Of a stretch of DNA of 28,474 nucleotides, positions 11,930 to 20,604 are shown piece after piece (positions within the stretch are counted from its first letter, which is position 1; every line of letters starts with the position of its first letter). This DNA is from a virus. The DNA is taken from the IMG/VR virus record IMGVR_UViG_3300048597_000176, positions 1-28,474 of that record. The stretch is one strand, 5' to 3'. The notes under the pieces were generated by a model that ran no database searches, had not been told where the DNA came from, and saw only the letters and a list, made by a program, of their open reading frames with translations. The position numbers and the translations under genes were made by a program.

Positions 11930-12508
11930 ATGGCTGAATTGGTGATTGCAGCAATGGCCACGGCGACCAGCGCGCTGGGCTCGCTGATGGGCGTAGGCGG
12001 CACGGTCGCGGGTGCAGCGGGCGCGGCGGGTGCGGCGGGTGCCGGTGCCAGCGCGCTGGGCAGCCTGTCGGGCGGCTTCAGCGCCTTCAGCGCGTTGGCC
12101 TCGCTGGGCAGCGGCATCATGGGCATGATGCAGGCCGGCCAGCAGGCACAGGGCAGCCGGCTCCAGGCCGCCTGGGAACAGGCCGGCGGGGCCGATGAAG
12201 TGGCGGACCTGATGGAAGCGCGCAACCGCACGATTGCCAACAACCTGACGATGGCGGCGGCATCCGGCATTGACAGTTCCGTGGGTGACCCTGCCGACGC
12301 GGCCCGCCAGGTGGAAGAAGATGCGAACCGGCAGATCGGCACGGCGGCGGCCAATGCCAACATGCGGCGCTACATGCGCCAGCAGCAGGCCAGCCAGAGC
12401 GAAATGACGGGCTTTGCCAGCCTGATCGGCGGGGTGGCCGGGGCGGCCAAGGAGCTGGCATCCAGCAGCATGTCATCAGCGCGGCGCGGTGCGCCGCAGG
12501 CGGCGTAG
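11930..12508 (+). CDS. Internal virion protein B (T7 gp14-like)
   Basis: A 192-residue protein with a GAGGTGAG ribosome-binding site. Residues 5-70 are an Ala/Gly/Ser-rich hydrophobic stretch with GxxxG-type spacing, able to enter membranes. Residues 70-160 are a polar helix with many Gln, Ala and Asn. This is the pattern of gp14, the ejected protein that forms a channel in the outer membrane during infection. The position after the nozzle gene and before two large internal proteins agrees with T7 gene order. Confidence 0.7.
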   Translation: MAELVIAAMATATSALGSLMGVGGTVAGAAGAAGAAGAGASALGSLSGGFSAFSALASLGSGIMGMMQAGQQAQGSRLQAAWEQAGGADEVADLMEARNRTIANNLTMAAASGIDSSVGDPADAARQVEEDANRQIGTAAANANMRRYMRQQQASQSEMTGFASLIGGVAGAAKELASSSMSSARRGAPQAA

Positions 12509-12509
12509 C

Positions 12510-14714
12510 ATGGTCAATTATTCGGGCGGCACCGGCAAGAAACCGCAGGCCTTCACGGCCAACACGGACGTTGACACACGGCTGCCGGCCTTCGAGGTCA
12601 GCAACGCGCCGGCGGCTGCGTTCAAGGGGCTGGCCGGCCAGCTGTCCAGCCTGGCCGGTGAAGCCGGGCAATGGGCCGATGCGGCGGCCAAGGCCGAAGG
12701 CGAGCGCGACGGCAGCATTGCCGGCACAACCGAGGGCTACCAGCCCACGCGCGCCAACACGATCTACGGCGCGGCGTTCGATGCCAGCGGCAACCGGGCA
12801 CTGGCGCTCCAGGTTGAGATGCGGGCGCGGCAAGAGCTGATGCAGGCGGCGGTCGCGTTCGGCGACAACCCGGCGGAAATGCAGGCGGCGACGGCCAAGA
12901 TCAACCAGAAATATGTCGGCGCGATCAACCGGGCTGTGCCGGAGCTGGCCGGCGATATCGGCGCGACGATCCAGCGCGCCGGCGATGGCTACACCTTCGC
13001 CGCTGCCAAGGAGCACCGGGCCAAGGTCGAGCGCGAGGACAAGGAGAATTTCGGCATCAACCTGAGCGGGCAGCTGGGCGACATCGCGCGGCTGGCTGTG
13101 GCCGGGTCTGGCGATCCGAAGCTGGGCGCGCGCCTTGAGGGCGAGTTGTCGCGCGTGGATGGGCAGATCGATGCAAGGGCCGATCTGTCGCCGCAACAGA
13201 AACAGCGGATGAAGGCTGCCGCGCGCAGCACGGCGGTTGGCGGACTGATCGAAGGCCAGATCGGCGACATTCAGGACATGGCGGCGCTCGATGCGTTCGG
13301 TAACCGGATGAAGGACGAATGGACGCAGAAAAAGGGTTTGCTGGGCAAGCTGGACCCTGACCAGTTCCAGGCGGCGCAGAATGCCGTGGAGCGGCGGCGG
13401 GCCGAGTTGACGCGCGTGGTGGCCGGCCAGCAGCGCCAGCTGAACGGCACGCTTCAGGAAATCGAGGGCGTGGTTCTGAGGGGCGAGGCCATCGGCCCGC
13501 AGGCGCTGGCCAATGCCACGGTGCGGCTGGCGCAGGCTGATCCGTCCGGCGAAATGGCGGCGCGGCTCCAGGAGCTGCAAGGCCTGCACGAATGGGGCCG
13601 GACCTTCCGCAGCGTGACGCCGCGCGAACAGGCGGCGACACTGGCCAGCATGGATGAGCGCGCGACACGCACCGGCCTTAACCCGATCGAGGAAAAGCGC
13701 CGCACGCTGGCGCGCAATGTGCTGGCGGACCGGGCCAAGGACGATGCCCGCGATATCCTGGGCACGGCCAACAAGAATTTCGGCGTGGCGATCGCCGACA
13801 TCGATTTCAGCGCGGCGGATTTCCCGCAGCAGGCCCGGCGGCGCACGGTCGAGGCGGAACAGTTTGCCAAGGAGCGCGGCATCCAGCCGATCTACCTCAA
13901 GGCCGCCGATCGCGAGCAACTGAAAAAGGCGATGGAGCAAGACCCGGCGGCGGCGCTCCAGTTCGGCCAGAAGATCATGGCCGGCTTCGGCACGGAGCGC
14001 GCGCCGCGCGTGCTGAAAGAGATCAGCGAGGATCTGCCGCAGCTGGCCTTTGCGCTGCGTCCGAACAACCCGAACCTGGCCAATGCCTGGCTGGTGTCGG
14101 AACAGATCGAGCGCAGCGGCCAGAAGCTGCCGGCGGTCAAGCTGGACCAGGTGCGCGACACGATGCGGACCATGGGGCTGGACCAGTTGTTTCAGGGCCG
14201 CGAAATCGAAATGGCCAAAATGGCCGATGCGGCCAGGCCGCTGGTCGGCGCGCGGCTGGGCGTGAATGCCGGCAAGTTCGAGCCGACTGACAGCAAGCAC
14301 AGGGCTGTGATGGCGGACGTGCTGAATGAGCTGGTCGGCAGGCAGCGCGATATCCGCACCGGCAAGGAGCTGGCCGGCCCGGTCAAGTTCAACGGCTTTA
14401 CCACGCTGGCGCCATCCAACATTGCGACCAACGATTTCCCGGCGCTGGTTCGCACGCTGGTTGACGGCGACCTGGCCGCTGCCGGCATCAAGGCCGTGGA
14501 TGCGGCTGGCCGGCCCCTGCCGATCGGCGATCTGCAAGGGGCGCGCTGGGTGCCTGTTGGCCGCGACCGCTACCGGATCGCGCTCGATGGCAAGCTGGCC
14601 GGCCCTAATCCATGGATCGGCGGCGGCGACGGCAAGCCGCTGGAAATCGACCTGTCGCCGGCGTCTCCGCTCATCAACCGGCTGCGCGAGCGCGCGCCGC
14701 GTCTGTTCAGGTGA
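12510..14714 (+). CDS. Internal virion protein C (T7 gp15-like)
   Basis: A 734-residue, almost entirely helical protein following the gp14-like gene. The N-terminus (MVNYSGGTGKKPQAFTANTDVDTRLPAFE) is disordered. Next comes AAFKGLAGQLSSLAGEAGQWADAAAKAEGERDG, the gp15-type pattern, then long Gln/Ala/Arg-rich helices. The C-terminal ~100 residues contain FTTLAPSNIATNDFPALVRTLVDGDLAAAGIKAVDAAG and a beta-rich WVPVGRDRYRIALDGK, again common in this family. It would be stored in the capsid core and ejected into the periplasm as part of the DNA-transfer tube. Start at 12510, just after the previous stop; an in-frame opening at 12489 gives only an Arg-rich leader. Confidence 0.72.
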   Translation: MVNYSGGTGKKPQAFTANTDVDTRLPAFEVSNAPAAAFKGLAGQLSSLAGEAGQWADAAAKAEGERDGSIAGTTEGYQPTRANTIYGAAFDASGNRALALQVEMRARQELMQAAVAFGDNPAEMQAATAKINQKYVGAINRAVPELAGDIGATIQRAGDGYTFAAAKEHRAKVEREDKENFGINLSGQLGDIARLAVAGSGDPKLGARLEGELSRVDGQIDARADLSPQQKQRMKAAARSTAVGGLIEGQIGDIQDMAALDAFGNRMKDEWTQKKGLLGKLDPDQFQAAQNAVERRRAELTRVVAGQQRQLNGTLQEIEGVVLRGEAIGPQALANATVRLAQADPSGEMAARLQELQGLHEWGRTFRSVTPREQAATLASMDERATRTGLNPIEEKRRTLARNVLADRAKDDARDILGTANKNFGVAIADIDFSAADFPQQARRRTVEAEQFAKERGIQPIYLKAADREQLKKAMEQDPAAALQFGQKIMAGFGTERAPRVLKEISEDLPQLAFALRPNNPNLANAWLVSEQIERSGQKLPAVKLDQVRDTMRTMGLDQLFQGREIEMAKMADAARPLVGARLGVNAGKFEPTDSKHRAVMADVLNELVGRQRDIRTGKELAGPVKFNGFTTLAPSNIATNDFPALVRTLVDGDLAAAGIKAVDAAGRPLPIGDLQGARWVPVGRDRYRIALDGKLAGPNPWIGGGDGKPLEIDLSPASPLINRLRERAPRLFR

Positions 14715-14717
14715 TCC

Positions 14718-17700
14718 ATGGAATTCTTTGACCCGTTCGATGGACCTGATGGCATCGTGCCCGGCGGCGTGCCGTCCTTCTCCGATCTGGCCGATGCCGC
14801 GTTCGACCAGACCTTGCTGGTCAGCAACGTGGGCGGTTCGTATCAGGCCAAGATCAGGGCCTATGCCGAGATCAACCGGAAGGTGAAAGAGACGTTCGGG
14901 CTGGACCTGCCCAACCCGGCGGCGGATTGGGACACGTTCGACCAGGTGACGGGCGAGCGCGGCGTGGCGCGCAACGGGCACCGGGAGACTGAAGCGGTCG
15001 AGGATATCGAAACCTACCATCAGCGCCGGCTGGCCGAATTGCAGGCGCAGGATGGCGAGCGGTTCAAGGCCGCCGGCCTGGACCAGCCGCTGGAAGATCG
15101 GATCACGGCTGTCATGCGTGGCGTGGTGCAGCGCAACCAGGAGCTGGGATCACGGGCGCAGGGCACGTTCAAGCCATTGCTGGCCTCGCTGTGGGGCGGC
15201 CTCCGGGCGCTGCCCTATGACCCGGTGCAAGTCGGCTCGCTGTTCGTGGGCGGCGGCGCGACCATTGCCGGACGCATTGCCATCGCGGGCGGTGTCAACG
15301 CGGGCGTTGAGGCGGTCAGCTATCCGTTCACCACGGGCCAGAAGGAACGGGCCGGCCTTGAAACCGGGCTGGGCGACCTGGCCAAGGACATGGCTGTTGC
15401 CGGCGTGTTCGGTGCCGGCCTGCAAGGCGCTGGCGAGGCCGTGGGGGCTGGCGCGCGCGCGCTGATGCGGAACATACCCGAAGCGCCGAAACCCGGCCAG
15501 AAGCCGGCGGCTGCCGATCCTGTTGCTGATCCTGTGGCCATGCCAGAGGCGCAGCCCGCACCGGTGCCGGACGCGCCGGCCATGCCAGCGCCAGACATGG
15601 ACCCGCTGGCAGCGCGCGGGGCTGATCTGGTGCGCGCGGCGGATGACGAGGCCTTGCGCGTGCGGCCGGAACCGGTGCTGCCCGATGACCATGCGCGCGC
15701 CCTGCGTGAGACGGTGCGCTTCCTGGACGAGCCCGGTGCTCCGGCACCCATCATGCCCGAAATCGTGCGGGATGGTGCGCCGGCCCTGCCGGCGGGGCTC
15801 GACGGGCCGGTGGCCAGCACGTTCGATTATCTCGGCAAGAGTGTGCAGCGCCGCAGCGTCGATCCGAGGGCGCTGACCTTCGATCCGGACCGCTTCCAAT
15901 ACAAGGGCGGCGGCGACGCGCGCGGTGTCACCGACCGGCTGTCCGGCGTGGACAAGTGGGACAACCTCGCGGCGCAGGCCGTGGTGGTGTTTGAACAGGC
16001 CGATGGCCGGCTGATCGTTGCCGATGGCCACCAGCGCACCGGGCTGGCGCAGCGGCTGCTGAAAGAAAACCTGGAGCCGTCTGTGTCGCTCGAAGCCTTT
16101 GTGCTGCGCGAAGCCGATGGCTGGACGGCGGACCAGGTGTTTGCGGTGGCGACCAAGCGCAACCTGCAACAGGGCACCGGCGATGTGACCGACACGGCGG
16201 TTGCGCTCCAGCGGCTGCCCGAAGTGCTGGACAAGAGCGTGGCGCGCGGCAATGCCCACATGCGGACGGCGCAGGGGCTTGCCCGGCTCGATCCGGACCT
16301 GCTGGCGCTGGTGCGCGCCGGCGGGCTGAGCCAGGAGGCTGGCAAGGTGATCGGCTACAAGCTGCCGGACCCGGCGCAACAGCGCGCGGCGGTGGCGGCG
16401 ATCCAGGCGCGCAACATCAAGGGCGAAGATGTGGTGTCCGGCTTCATCGACGAAATGAAGGCCAGCCAGATGCGCGTGGAAACCACGTTCGATCTGTTCG
16501 GCGAAGCTGAAATCACGCGCACGCTGGCCGTTGAAATGGCAGAGCTGAAGGTGAAGGTCGCGGAGCTGCTGAAGCAGAATGCCAAGGCCTTCAAGCGCGT
16601 GAACGAGGCTGCCGACATGCTCGAAGCGCGCTCGAACCGGATCGCGCGCGATGTGAATGCCTCGGTGTCAGAGGCCTCGAACACGGCAGCGGAATATGTG
16701 CGATCGCTGTCGATCGATCCCGGCCCGATGCGCGACATGATGATGGCCGGGGCGCAGCGCATGGCGGCGGGCGAAAAGCTGGCCAAGGTGGCGCGCGATG
16801 TGGCCAAACAGATTGCCGATGCGACGGAGCGCGACGGCATCGACGCCATGCTGCCGCGCCCTGTGACGCTCCAGGGCGTCAAGCAGATGACGCCGAAGAT
16901 CGACGATCCGACCGGGCCGGCGGCGAAGCAGCGGGCCGATGCGATGGAACGCAGCCTGCGCGGTGAAGTTGACGCCGCAAGGCAAAGGACAGATGCTGAA
17001 TTGCCGAAGGAGGGCAATGCCGGTGACATCGAAAAACGAGCCGAAGCCGCCGCAGCCGGCACCCTTGACACCGGAACGGGTGGAGCAGATCGGGGTGGAG
17101 CTGGCGCGGCGGATCAAGGCCTTCAAGCCTCGCCTGCGCGGACGGACGGACCCGCCGGCGGCCCGGCCCGATTAGTCGAAAAGCAAGGTCGCACGTTCGT
17201 TGATACGCGCGGCGCTGCCGTCCAGTATCATGGTTCGTCTGTTGCCGATCTGAAGCCAATCGACGAACACTACAGTTCGCTGAATTACTACGGCACTGGC
17301 TTTTACACGACTGATGCGGTCGATGTTGCCTGGGGCTACAGCAAGCGCGGCAGCGATCGCACGGGCGGGCGCGAGCTGTATCAGGTGGTTGAAAACAGGC
17401 CGCTGCGCATCCTTGACGGAGAAGCTGCATTTGAGGGCGACATCAAGCTGCTGGTCGATGATCTGCGCGGTCGCATGAATGACAACGGCGACCTTGGCGA
17501 TATTGTCCTTGCGGCGCTTGATGAAAACCCTCGCAACCTGCGCGAGCTTTACGACAATATCCGCGATATCGGCACCAATGATTACAACTGGAGCGCCGAT
17601 AGCATCCAGGAAGCCTTTGACGTGCTGCGCTATGGCTGGGAACAGGCCGGCTATGATGGCCTGGCGCATCTTGGCGGCTTGAGAACCAAAACCGAGCCGC

Positions 17701-18110
17701 ATCGCGTGGTTGTCTATTTTGCGCCGCAGCGCGACCTGACGGTTACCAAAGCCAGTTACAACCGTTTCGATCCACCGGCAGCGCCAGCGCCGGCTGCCGA
17801 ACCGGGTGCCGAAGGCATGCCGCAGCTGCTGCTGGATGGTGTCGCGCCGGTGCGGGATGCCGACCGGATGGCGCTGGAGGCGGCCAGGCCGCTGCGCGGG
17901 GGCGATGCCGCGCCGCCGGAGGGCGGGCTGTTCGACGACGCGGCGCGCGACCAGGGCGGGCTGTTCGACATGGTGCCGGGGCAGGATGCGGGCCGGATCA
18001 TCGACGGTGTGGCGGCGGCTGGCGAGCTGCGCACGCGCCAGCAAGTGCTGGATGATCTGGACCGGCTCGATGCCGAAAACACCTTGCTCGATGCCTGCCT
18101 GAAGGGCTGA
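14718..18110 (+). CDS. Polyvalent ejection-type protein with ParB-like and ADP-ribosyltransferase-like domains
   Basis: An 1130-residue protein in the ejection-protein block, with AGGTGA before the ATG. Residues 1-130 resemble N-termini of internal virion proteins. About 165-260 is Gly/Ala-rich and may contact membranes. About 260-330 is a Pro/Ala linker. About 355-570 looks like a ddrB-type ParB-like domain with the signature DGHQR at 436-440, followed by a helical region containing TTFDLFGE. About 760-820 is a flexible linker. About 820-1010 looks like an ADP-ribosyltransferase of the polyvalent-protein type: H838-G-S, GTGFYTTD near 859-866, LYQVVENRPL, and AGYDGL. The usual catalytic Glu near VVVYFAP is not clearly in place. 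The tail has GGLFD and QGGLFDM motifs. It could modify host proteins after ejection; that is inferred. Confidence 0.75.
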   Translation: MEFFDPFDGPDGIVPGGVPSFSDLADAAFDQTLLVSNVGGSYQAKIRAYAEINRKVKETFGLDLPNPAADWDTFDQVTGERGVARNGHRETEAVEDIETYHQRRLAELQAQDGERFKAAGLDQPLEDRITAVMRGVVQRNQELGSRAQGTFKPLLASLWGGLRALPYDPVQVGSLFVGGGATIAGRIAIAGGVNAGVEAVSYPFTTGQKERAGLETGLGDLAKDMAVAGVFGAGLQGAGEAVGAGARALMRNIPEAPKPGQKPAAADPVADPVAMPEAQPAPVPDAPAMPAPDMDPLAARGADLVRAADDEALRVRPEPVLPDDHARALRETVRFLDEPGAPAPIMPEIVRDGAPALPAGLDGPVASTFDYLGKSVQRRSVDPRALTFDPDRFQYKGGGDARGVTDRLSGVDKWDNLAAQAVVVFEQADGRLIVADGHQRTGLAQRLLKENLEPSVSLEAFVLREADGWTADQVFAVATKRNLQQGTGDVTDTAVALQRLPEVLDKSVARGNAHMRTAQGLARLDPDLLALVRAGGLSQEAGKVIGYKLPDPAQQRAAVAAIQARNIKGEDVVSGFIDEMKASQMRVETTFDLFGEAEITRTLAVEMAELKVKVAELLKQNAKAFKRVNEAADMLEARSNRIARDVNASVSEASNTAAEYVRSLSIDPGPMRDMMMAGAQRMAAGEKLAKVARDVAKQIADATERDGIDAMLPRPVTLQGVKQMTPKIDDPTGPAAKQRADAMERSLRGEVDAARQRTDAELPKEGNAGDIEKRAEAAAAGTLDTGTGGADRGGAGAADQGLQASPARTDGPAGGPARLVEKQGRTFVDTRGAAVQYHGSSVADLKPIDEHYSSLNYYGTGFYTTDAVDVAWGYSKRGSDRTGGRELYQVVENRPLRILDGEAAFEGDIKLLVDDLRGRMNDNGDLGDIVLAALDENPRNLRELYDNIRDIGTNDYNWSADSIQEAFDVLRYGWEQAGYDGLAHLGGLRTKTEPHRVVVYFAPQRDLTVTKASYNRFDPPAAPAPAAEPGAEGMPQLLLDGVAPVRDADRMALEAARPLRGGDAAPPEGGLFDDAARDQGGLFDMVPGQDAGRIIDGVAAAGELRTRQQVLDDLDRLDAENTLLDACLKG
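17017..17175 (+). CDS. Nested 52-codon open frame inside the polyvalent gene
   Basis: This frame lies in another reading frame within the linker before the ADP-ribosyltransferase-like domain. A full AAGGAGG sits at 17007-17013, three bases before the ATG, which is close but usable. The protein (MPVTSKNEPKPPQPAPLTPE, then RVEQIGVELARRIKAFKPR) reads like a real small protein with a proline-rich start and a basic amphipathic helix. By hand count about 85% of its third bases are G or C, against about 56% for the long frame over the same bases. It is either a real overlapping gene or the remnant of a gene that was overrun when the transferase domain was fused. Confidence 0.45.
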   Translation: MPVTSKNEPKPPQPAPLTPERVEQIGVELARRIKAFKPRLRGRTDPPAARPD

Positions 18111-18114
18111 CCCG

Positions 18115-20604
18115 ATGACCTTGCGAACCTGCATCCAGACCGCACTTGACGCCGGCGACATCGACAAGGCCAGCGCCTCGAAGCTGACGGAGCTTTACGA
18201 CGATCTGGCCGCCGATGCGGCGCGGCTGGGGCTGGTCGATGACGTGGCGATCACCAGGCAGGTGGTCGATACGATCAAGGCGGACAACCTGCTGCGCCGG
18301 CACCGGGAGCTGCTGACGATCAAGGCGCTCGATGCGATCAAGGTCGATCTGGTGAAGGCGCAAGGGGCCGGCAAGAGCGTGGCGGATGGCGCGGTGCTGC
18401 TGCTCGAAAACTTCGGTGAAGCGCCGTTCCGGTCCGTTGTGGAGATCCGCAAGTCGATTGCCAACATCGCGCGGGCCGAAATGGCCGATGTGCTCAACCG
18501 GTTCGAGCGGACCTGGACCACGGGCCGGACGCCGAACCGCGCCGATCTGGACAACATGCTGCGCGAAGTGCACGGGCAGGGCACCGGCGACGCGCGCGCC
18601 AAGGCCATGGCCGAGGCCTGGGCGTCTGTCTCGGAATACCTGCGCCAGCGCTTCAATGCGGCTGGCGGGGCGATCGGCAAGATCGACAACTATTTCCCGC
18701 ACAGCCACGACGCGGCGGCCTTGTGGCGCTCGGGCAAGGAAGCCTGGCAGAAGGTCGCAAACGAGCGGTTTGACCGCACCAAGATGCTGGACCCGCTGAC
18801 CAAGCAGCCTTTCACGGACACGGGCTGGCAGCGCCAGCTGGACCGGCTCTATGACCGGATCGTCACCGGCGGCGATGTGCACCTTCAGCCATCGTTTGCC
18901 GGCGGCGGCCAGGCGCTGGCCTCTCGCCATGCCGATCACCGGTTCATCCAGTTCAAGAGCGCGGATGACTGGCTGGCCTATGATGCCGAATTCGGCACCG
19001 GCAATCCGTTCGTGGCGATGCTCGACTATGTGGACACGATGGCGCGCGACATCGCGCTGATGGAGCGGCTGGGGCCAAACCCGGCATCCATGATCCGCTA
19101 CCTGCAAGACATGATTGCCAAGGAGCGCGCGACCGAGGCGGCGGCGCAAGGTGGCAAGGAAAGCGGCGGGGTCAACCCGTTCAACCGTTCGCCGGAGAAG
19201 CTGCTTCAGGATGTCTATGACGATGTGTCGGGCGCGGCCTACACCGTCAAGGGCAACATGGCGCTGGCCAATGCGTCCTCGAACCTGCGCAACCTGGTGT
19301 CGTCTGCCAAGCTGGGCGGGGCCGTGATCAGTTCGCTGACCGACCTGGGCAACCAGAGCTGGGCGCGCGCCTTTGCTGGCATGTCCGGCAGCCCGCTGAT
19401 CACGCCGCTGACGGACACGATCAACGCTTTCAGAGGATCGACGCGCGACGAGCTGCTGCGCGCCGGGCTGGCCACCGACCGGGTGCTGACCGTGATGCAG
19501 CGCGAGGCCAGCGCGCTGGGCGTGGCGGACGGGGCGGGCTGGAGCCAATGGATGGCTGACCGGACCATGACCTGGAGTGGCCTCACCGGGCTGACGCGGG
19601 CGCTGCGCGAGGGCTTCGGCCTGCGCTTCCTGTCCGACATCACCGAAATGCGCGGGCTGGATTGGGCCGCCATGAAAACGGAATGGCCGGGCTACCGGGC
19701 CATGTTCGAGCGCTACGGGCTGAATGAAGCCGACTGGAACGCGGTGCGCGCTGTTGCGCCTGCTGCCGGCGGCATCATCCGGCCAACGGACGTTGCGCGG
19801 GCCGGCCAGCGCGAGGCGGCAGAGCGGCTGCTGGGCATGATCGCACAGGAAACCGAGTTCGCCACCTTGCAGCGTGTCCACCGGGTCTATGCCGGGGAGA
19901 ACATGCTGTCGATCAACATGACCGGCGAGCGCGGCACCACGGCAGGCGAGCTGAAGCGCCACATGATGAGCCTGAAGGGCTATTCGTTGATGGTGTTCAA
20001 GATGCAAACCATACGCGCCGGCCAGGTGGCAGCTGGCAGCGGATCGCGGGCGGCAGGCGGGGCCTACTTCGCCGGCTGGTTCCTGACCATGACCCTGCTG
20101 GGTGGCATGGTGATCCAGCTGAAGGAAATGGCGCGCGGCAAAGACCCGCGCGATGTGACCGATCCGCAGTTTTGGGGCGAAGCGGCCTTTCAGGGCGGCG
20201 GGCTTGGCATCATGGGCGATTTCATCCGCTCCGAAACCAACCGTGTGGGCGGCGGCATGGCCGAAACCATCATGGGGCCAACGCTTGGTTCCGTGTCGCC
20301 GATCCTCGATCTGGCGATCACCACGCCGCTCCAGATGCTGAATGACAAGGAGCCGAACCCAGGCCGGCAGGTGCGGCGCTTCCTGTCCAACAACACGCCG
20401 ATGCTGCCGTTTTACCTGCGCCTGGGCTATGAACGCGCCATCCTCGACCGGTTGCAAGAGGCGCTGGACCCGAAGGCCAAGCAGGCCTTTCGCGACCAGA
20501 TCAGGAAAAGCCAGAACGATTACGGGCAAGACTGGTGGTGGCAGCCGGGCGACCGCGAACCGGAGCGCGGGCCGGACCTTGGCGCGGCGCTGGGCGGCAA
20601 CTGA
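18115..20604 (+). CDS. Internal virion protein D-like DNA ejection/channel protein (T7 gp16-like position)
   Basis: An 829-residue, mainly helical protein after the polyvalent gene, with AAGGG before the start. No lytic transglycosylase motif is visible, unlike T7 gp16. The middle contains SSNLRNLVSSAKLGGAVISSLTDLGNQSWARAF (about 395-425), a pattern seen in large phage ejection proteins. Near residue 640-665 a hydrophobic stretch YFAGWFLTMTLLGGMVIQL could span a membrane, followed by a Gly-rich QGGGLGIMGDFI segment. The C-terminus (NDYGQDWWWQPGDREPERGP) is a conserved-looking Trp-rich end. It would be stored in the capsid and form the inner-membrane part of the DNA conduit; this is inferred from position and features. 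Confidence 0.68.
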   Translation: MTLRTCIQTALDAGDIDKASASKLTELYDDLAADAARLGLVDDVAITRQVVDTIKADNLLRRHRELLTIKALDAIKVDLVKAQGAGKSVADGAVLLLENFGEAPFRSVVEIRKSIANIARAEMADVLNRFERTWTTGRTPNRADLDNMLREVHGQGTGDARAKAMAEAWASVSEYLRQRFNAAGGAIGKIDNYFPHSHDAAALWRSGKEAWQKVANERFDRTKMLDPLTKQPFTDTGWQRQLDRLYDRIVTGGDVHLQPSFAGGGQALASRHADHRFIQFKSADDWLAYDAEFGTGNPFVAMLDYVDTMARDIALMERLGPNPASMIRYLQDMIAKERATEAAAQGGKESGGVNPFNRSPEKLLQDVYDDVSGAAYTVKGNMALANASSNLRNLVSSAKLGGAVISSLTDLGNQSWARAFAGMSGSPLITPLTDTINAFRGSTRDELLRAGLATDRVLTVMQREASALGVADGAGWSQWMADRTMTWSGLTGLTRALREGFGLRFLSDITEMRGLDWAAMKTEWPGYRAMFERYGLNEADWNAVRAVAPAAGGIIRPTDVARAGQREAAERLLGMIAQETEFATLQRVHRVYAGENMLSINMTGERGTTAGELKRHMMSLKGYSLMVFKMQTIRAGQVAAGSGSRAAGGAYFAGWFLTMTLLGGMVIQLKEMARGKDPRDVTDPQFWGEAAFQGGGLGIMGDFIRSETNRVGGGMAETIMGPTLGSVSPILDLAITTPLQMLNDKEPNPGRQVRRFLSNNTPMLPFYLRLGYERAILDRLQEALDPKAKQAFRDQIRKSQNDYGQDWWWQPGDREPERGPDLGAALGGN

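What the first reader, a model, noticed from the sequence alone, without database searches (positions are those of the whole stretch)
17180..17760. ADP-ribosyltransferase-like domain in a virion ejection-type protein
Residues about 820-1010 of the 1130-residue protein carry the layout of polyvalent-protein ADP-ribosyltransferases (HGS, GTGFYTTD, LYQVVENRPL, AGYDGL). The gene sits among the T7-like internal virion protein genes, so the enzyme may be packed in the capsid and ejected with the DNA to modify host proteins at once, as T4 Alt does by a different virion route. The DNA of this domain is visibly more AT-rich than its flanks, suggesting later acquisition. The expected catalytic Glu near VVVYFAP is not clearly placed, so activity is uncertain.
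Basis: partly seen in the sequence, partly recalled or inferred. Interest (0 to 1): 0.78.

Follow-up and report, generated by a model that had tools for sequence, protein, structure and literature searches.

The report
Swappable enzyme in phage ejection protein
A bacterial virus carries, inside a protein that it probably shoots into its host together with its DNA, an enzyme module that resembles ADP-ribosylating toxins, and related viruses carry other toxin-like enzymes, or none, in exactly the same place.

Summary
Residues ~828-1010 of the 1130-aa protein (window 17199-17748) form an ADP-ribosyltransferase (ART) fold. With 14 aligned sequences AlphaFold2 gives pLDDT 87 and pTM 0.84; the leading structural matches are ART-superfamily proteins (RES and diphtheria-type toxins, NatT, tankyrase), and viral matches are polyvalent ARTs. 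The domain is the most AT-rich stretch of its length in the part of the window scanned. The feared missing glutamate is not the test: published polyvalent ARTs use His-Tyr-Asp, and H838, Y863 and D980 are present.

The protein occupies the gp16 position of an epsilon15/phiV10-type phage, between gp15- and gp17-like genes; it is not a T7 homolog. It has a cargo slot between a ParB-like core and a conserved C-terminal peptide. Related phages fill the slot with a Tas1-like pyrophosphokinase (23 of 71), a Zeta-toxin kinase (18), an ART, other domains, or nothing; none has both of the two common ones. The same ART subfamily occurs in unrelated ejection proteins of other podophages.

Unexpected: these giant proteins are almost cysteine-free. 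gp16 keeps one Cys near its C-terminus and gp17 one near its N-terminus, down to phiV10, suggesting a disulfide link. Polyvalent ARTs are known, so this is a new variant. Activity and ejection are inferred.

The parts
14718..18110 (+). Polyvalent gp16-like ejection protein, 1130 aa
   Evidence: intact ORF; family of 98 nonredundant homologs, mostly directly upstream of gp17-like genes (80 such pairs); same order as phiV10 p18-p19-p20
14718..15851 (+). N-terminal scaffold (residues 1-378)
   Evidence: 45% identical to L003 over residues 21-762; shared by homologs without ParB-like core or cargo
15852..16988 (+). ParB/Srx-like and helical core (residues ~379-757), conserved ADGHQR at 16020-16037
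   Evidence: alignment A3, invariant A-D-G-H-Q-R; ParB assignment by motif only: no Pfam ParB family passed in the window protein
17199..17748 (+). ART-fold cargo domain (residues 828-1010)
17229..17231 (+). H838, strand-1 His, invariant in 14/14
17304..17306 (+). Y863, strand-2 Tyr, invariant in 14/14
17655..17657 (+). D980, Asp at start of strand 5 (third residue of the published H-Y-D configuration), 7/14
17700..17702 (+). H995, invariant His of the last motif (PHxV) where a Glu was expected
17955..18107 (+). Conserved C-terminal peptide with the only Cys of the protein (C1127, 18096-18098)
   Evidence: only nearly invariant column among 71 C-terminal regions; Cys in last 10 residues of 86/90 full-length relatives
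18115..20604 (+). gp17-like virion structural protein, 829 aa, only Cys at position 6 (18130-18132)
   Evidence: phrog_684 E 1e-136; 112 phage records; lone N-terminal Cys
12489..14714 (+). gp15-like protein, 741 aa, no Cys
   Evidence: homolog in L003; position as phiV10 p18; Cys count
11930..12508 (+). Small protein (192 aa, no Cys) in the gp14 position, by gene order only

Best explanation
The domain is an H-Y-D type ADP-ribosyltransferase module (NAD-dependent effector) carried as interchangeable cargo inside the gp16-like ejection protein of an epsilon15/phiV10-type short-tailed phage. Proposed course: gp15, gp16 and gp17 are built into the virion core above the portal; on infection they leave the capsid, form the trans-envelope conduit, and gp16 brings its cargo to the cytoplasmic end, where the ART modifies a host macromolecule before phage genes are expressed. 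The C-terminal peptide of gp16 is the constant anchor, probably bound to the N-terminus of gp17, perhaps by a disulfide between the two lone cysteines once they reach the oxidising periplasm. Shown here by computation: predicted ART fold, slot, cargo exchange, cysteine pattern. Inferred: packaging, ejection, catalysis, target, disulfide.
For: Fold. Triad: with the H-Y-D rule in PMC5512222. Position: gp15-gp16-gp17 order as in phiV10; downstream phrog_684; epsilon15 core leaves the capsid and forms a tube according to the literature (PMC12391199; PMC5850374). Cargo exchange: L003, closest scaffold, without ART; L117 with ART 47-53% identical but core only 36%; L043 as L117 but empty; other occupants are Tas1-like, PDB 6ox6 E 1e-21, and Zeta_toxin E down to 8.5e-23. 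Same ART subfamily in unrelated proteins of other podophages: L202 (phrog_12003 'internal virion protein', E 3e-99); L197/L209 in the T7 gp16 position by gene order. Near absence of Cys in all of these, as in T7 gp15/gp16 and P22 gp7/gp20/gp16.
Against: No virion proteomics and no assay. Pfam scores are under the curated cut-offs. The third residue D980 is lost in half of the subfamily, so catalysis could be lost or altered in part of it. PDB fold matches are remote (TM-score about 0.4, no E below 0.001). One review states that the visible epsilon15 core is a single protein, gp17 (PMC5850374), so the place of gp16 in the virion is less sure.
Confidence: 0.7

Rival explanations
1. The module consumes NAD+ (glycohydrolase or phosphorolysis, as RES and NatT toxins do) rather than transferring ADP-ribose to a target: an ejected NAD+-depleting toxin or a counter to NAD-based defence.
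For: The best solved-fold matches are RES toxins of Xre-RES systems, with NatT also on the list. Neighbouring slot occupants are small-molecule toxins: Tas1-like pyrophosphokinase and Zeta-type kinase.
Against: Sequence families that match are polyvalent ARTs. Fold similarity at TM about 0.4 does not separate transferase from hydrolase.
Confidence: 0.25
2. The domain is a catalytically dead ART fold used for binding (structural or NAD/nucleic-acid sensing).
For: No acidic residue is invariant near the last motif, and the strand-5 Asp is replaced by H, Q, G or R in 7 of 14 relatives.
Against: The window protein itself keeps H838, Y863 and D980; the pocket motifs HG, GxGxYTTD and GG are invariant in 14 of 14. 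Exchange with active-looking enzymes in the same slot argues for enzymatic use.
Confidence: 0.15
3. The protein is a non-virion late protein or a passenger gene, and its position among structural genes is coincidental.
For: No proteomics available.
Against: The scaffold, with and without cargo, lies directly upstream of gp17 in 80 locus pairs; the lone-Cys partnership with gp17; the ART subfamily recurs in unrelated internal virion proteins.
Confidence: 0.08

Closest known systems
Polyvalent proteins with ART-PolyVal / Tox-ART-HYD2 domains (Iyer et al. 2017, PMC5512222)
   Same: Large multidomain phage protein; ART with His, Tyr, Asp; company of ParB-like, RelA/SpoT-like, Zeta-like and zincin domains; predicted head packaging and injection.
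   Different: This ART subfamily scores below Pfam's cut-offs, keeps an invariant His in the last motif and only half keeps the Asp; it sits in an epsilon15-type gp16 slot with a conserved C-terminal peptide. That paper's main text has no occurrence of epsilon15, internal virion, ejection or cysteine.
Epsilon15/phiV10 gp15-gp16-gp17 core proteins
   Same: Gene order, gp17 homology, single Cys near the C-terminus of gp16 and at position 5 of gp17.
   Different: phiV10 gp16 is 600 aa with no recognised cargo and no phmmer similarity to this protein; here a ParB-like core and an ART are added.
Phage T4 Alt
   Same: Virion-borne ART delivered with the DNA (function by analogy).
   Different: Alt belongs to the R-S-E class and is a separate head protein (PMC5512222).
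Tas1 (effector that makes (p)ppApp; function from my own knowledge)
   Same: Its catalytic domain type occupies the same slot in 23 relatives (E 1e-21 by profile).
   Different: Delivered by a phage ejection protein rather than a type VI secretion system; not in the window itself.

Membership tests
ART superfamily | ART fold in prediction | tested here: met
   pLDDT 86.9, pTM 0.84; PDB matches RES, diphtheria-type, NatT, tankyrase
ART superfamily | NAD-dependent activity | not testable with these tools
   needs biochemistry
Pfam ART-PolyVal (PF18760) | score above the curated cut-off (31.2 bits) | tested here: not met
   19.1 bits, E 0.0024, profile 8-127/140
Pfam DUF3990 (PF13151) | score above the curated cut-off (32.2 bits) | tested here: not met
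   21 bits, E 0.00028
Tox-ART-HYD2 / polyvalent ART clade | His in strand 1, Tyr in strand 2, Asp in strand 5 | tested here: met
   H838, Y863, D980 in the window protein; Asp kept in 7 of 14 relatives, so met for this protein and not for the whole subfamily
Polyvalent protein | unrelated enzymatic domains combined in one large phage protein | tested here: met
   ART plus ParB-like core (motif only); relatives with Tas1-like, Zeta, LPD23, zincin, M15 peptidase domains
Epsilon15-type gp16 ejection protein | gene between gp15-like and gp17-like virion genes | tested here: met
Epsilon15-type gp16 ejection protein | sequence homology to phiV10 p19 | tested here: inconclusive
   no phmmer link; shared C-terminal peptide with single Cys and gene order
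Epsilon15-type gp16 ejection protein | present in virion and ejected | not testable with these tools
   needs proteomics and ejection assay
T7 gp16-type internal virion protein | homology to T7 gp16 | tested here: not met
   no phmmer match
DdrB-like ParB domain | Pfam match or conserved active-site motif | tested here: inconclusive
   invariant ADGHQR but no ParB family match in the window protein

The most novel reading that the evidence does not exclude
The ejection proteins of epsilon15-type phages are kept almost free of cysteine because they cross the oxidising periplasm, and exactly two cysteines are retained, one near the C-terminus of gp16 and one near the N-terminus of gp17, to form a specific inter-protein disulfide (or metal) link that holds the interchangeable enzyme cargo to the conduit. 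In other words, a standard toxin bay with a redox latch, loaded in turn with ART, Tas1-like, Zeta-like or other enzymes.
Probability: 0.4. Interest if true: 0.8.

Novelty: new variant of a known kind. Interest (0 to 1): 0.62.

Why it matters
Among head-delivered phage ARTs T4 Alt is the worked example (PMC5512222). Here the cargo site is defined precisely enough to test: the same scaffold exists empty, with ART, with a Tas1-like and with a Zeta-type enzyme, so the contribution of the cargo can be separated from that of the conduit. The cysteine pattern offers a simple sequence mark for proteins that pass through the periplasm during phage entry, and a single-residue test of how two ejection proteins are joined, a gap in the structure of podophage ejection.

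Tried and rejected
Single-sequence fold of the domain: unreadable, pLDDT 38. Single-protein scans for relatives of the ART: none, and the A4 alignment scan found only L117's contig again; a DNA pattern for GxGxYTTDxxDVA found the subfamily. Sequence search of PDB with the domain or its profile: nothing significant; the best profile hit, Chelona toxin E 0.1, points the same way as the fold search. ART families in host genomes: no relative of this subfamily in 385 genomes of one class of bacteria (no positive control rang); PF18760 rare there, 3 of 289. Considered that the lone Cys of gp16 and gp17 is a by-product of overlapping genes or of a ribosome-binding site: rejected, because it persists when the genes lie apart (Dunaliella virus SI2, 6498 to 6632 in L102) and both TGC and TGT are used. 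Considered that the missing N-terminal Cys in 8 of 90 gp17 was real: six are misplaced start codons. Considered T7 homology of the scaffold: no match. The L003 segment in the slot stayed unidentified.

Full report
What is there. The window is a 28,474-base virus record. The ORF 14718-18110 (1130 aa) is intact. It lies between a 741-aa gp15-like gene and an 829-aa gene of phrog_684, virion structural protein, E 1e-136, whose relatives include phiV10 and many epsilon15-like podophages. In phiV10 the corresponding order is p18-p19-p20, the equivalents of epsilon15 gp15-gp16-gp17.

Is the ART real? The isolated domain hits DUF3990 (E 3e-4) and ART-PolyVal (E 3e-3) first among all Pfam models, below curated cut-offs. 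A pattern scan for its second motif found 15 viral loci, one of them the contig of L117; every one encodes the full set of motifs. In the alignment of 14 (A8) the invariant residues are H838, G839, N856, G859, G861, Y863, T864, T865, D866, D869, V870, A871, Y874, G978, G981, G986, G987, H995 and V997 (renumbered by adding 817; spot-checked). Twelve of the 14 match each of the two Pfam families at E<0.1. With this alignment AlphaFold2 gives pLDDT 86.9 and pTM 0.84. Fold matches in PDB are led by RES toxins, diphtheria-type toxins, NatT and tankyrase; in the viral library 28 matches have E<=0.001, several of them named polyvalent or ART-PolyVal.

Catalytic residues. Iyer and colleagues report that ARTs of polyvalent proteins use His in strand 1, Tyr in strand 2 and Asp in strand 5 (PMC5512222). 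In the model one strand is residues 19-23 of the fragment (holding H838), another 45-48 (Y863), and the strand at 164-169 begins just after D980. So the window protein has the published triad. The Asp is replaced by H, Q, G or R in 7 of 14 relatives, while H995 is invariant. I therefore think the window protein is probably active, but the subfamily as a whole is uncertain.

Acquired module. GC of the domain is 57.3% against a mean of 65.9% (sd 2.5), the lowest of 874 windows; GC3 is 66% against 80% in the core. The closest scaffold relative, L003, is 45% identical over residues 21-762 and shares the C-terminal tail, but has a different, unidentified segment in place of the ART. L117 has a core only 36% identical and an ART 47-53% identical. 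L043 resembles L117 (59% over the alignment) and simply lacks the ART. The nearest ART of all, L208 (57%), sits in a protein with no detectable scaffold similarity. This is exchange of a module, not common descent of the whole protein.

The slot. The family has 98 nonredundant representatives. Of 71 C-terminal regions examined, 23 carry a domain whose profile matches Tas1, the (p)ppApp-making effector (PDB 6ox6, E 1e-21), and 18 carry a Zeta-toxin kinase by my local profile (19 by Pfam); 2 carry this ART, and none carries both of the two common ones. Independence would give no overlap with probability 2e-4, an overstatement because the sequences are related. The remaining 28 include a canonical ART-PolyVal above cut-off (L114) and LPD23 proteins with HExxH motifs. 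Another 24 representatives have short tails without cargo, some of them cut by contig ends. An M15 peptidase (L090) lies in a second insertion site before the ParB-like core.

The same ART elsewhere. Twelve of the 13 other host proteins (L197-L206, L208-L210) contain no cysteine at all, some over 1000 aa, and the thirteenth has one in the stop-to-stop reading (none from its likely start). They fall into about ten groups with no mutual similarity outside the ART, although several are cut by contig ends. L202's is an internal virion protein by PHROG (E 3e-99). L209 shows what look like portal, scaffold, capsid, two tail genes, then small, 578-aa and ART proteins in the T7 order, judged by gene order and sizes.

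Lone cysteines. The window's gp15-, gp16- and gp17-like proteins (2700 aa) contain two cysteines: C1127 of gp16 and C6 of gp17. Among 90 full-length gp16 relatives 80 have exactly one Cys and 86 have a Cys within the last ten residues; that Cys is the only nearly invariant column of 71 C-terminal regions. Among 90 gp17 relatives 82 have a Cys in the first 12 residues, and six of the other eight are start-codon errors. In 80 gene pairs 77 have both, and the three exceptions are start errors. phiV10, BcepC6B, YA3, YeP5, an Acinetobacter phage and Dunaliella virus SI2 show the same. Neighbouring tail proteins have 0.42% Cys, gp15-like proteins none in 25 of 26. T7 gp15 and gp16 and P22 gp7, gp20 and gp16 have none. 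I read the absence as selection on proteins that cross the oxidising periplasm, and the two retained residues as a likely bond between gp16 and gp17. I found no mention in the papers searched, which cover open-access papers only.

How it works, most likely. The ejection proteins leave the head first and build the conduit (literature for epsilon15: PMC12391199, PMC5850374). gp16 brings an enzyme that acts on the host at once. Which target the ART modifies is unknown; NAD+ depletion is a serious rival because RES toxins are the best structural matches.

Novelty. Polyvalent phage proteins with ART, ParB, RelA/SpoT and Zeta-like domains were described in 2017. New here, as far as I could check: the ART subfamily with invariant His in the last motif, the defined cargo slot in epsilon15-type gp16 with mutually exclusive Tas1-like and Zeta enzymes, its recurrence in unrelated ejection proteins, and the cysteine pair.

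Noticed in passing
window 18096-18098 and 18130-18132; relatives: Lone conserved cysteine near the C-terminus of gp16 and near the N-terminus of gp17, in otherwise cysteine-free ejection proteins; conserved in phiV10, BcepC6B, YA3, YeP5 and SI2.
   Followed up: yes
L190 (T7 gp15, gp16) and L191 (P22 gp7, gp20, gp16): Classical ejection proteins of T7 and P22 contain no cysteine at all; cysteine absence may mark proteins ejected through the periplasm and could serve as a genome-mining signal.
   Followed up: partly
L081:6000-6500, L047:5952-6500 and 21 others: Tas1-like pyrophosphokinase domain in the cargo slot of the same ejection protein (PDB 6ox6, E 1e-21).
   Followed up: partly
L039:3426-7001, L074:3747-7001, L038, L037, L033: Zeta-toxin kinase in the cargo slot, E 1e-13 to 1e-20.
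   Followed up: partly
L110:4813-9552: A protein with Zeta kinase, zincin-like HEAIH and the start of an ART-PolyVal domain in one chain; lacks the C-terminal Cys peptide in this contig.
   Followed up: no
L003:9264-9770: Unidentified ~150-aa segment in the slot of the closest scaffold relative; no Pfam match, possibly GNAT-like by eye.
   Followed up: no
L203:1250-10867: 3206-aa cysteine-free protein with the same ART subfamily.
   Followed up: no
L090:3151-6474: Peptidase M15 domain inserted before the ParB-like core: a second insertion site in the same scaffold.
   Followed up: no
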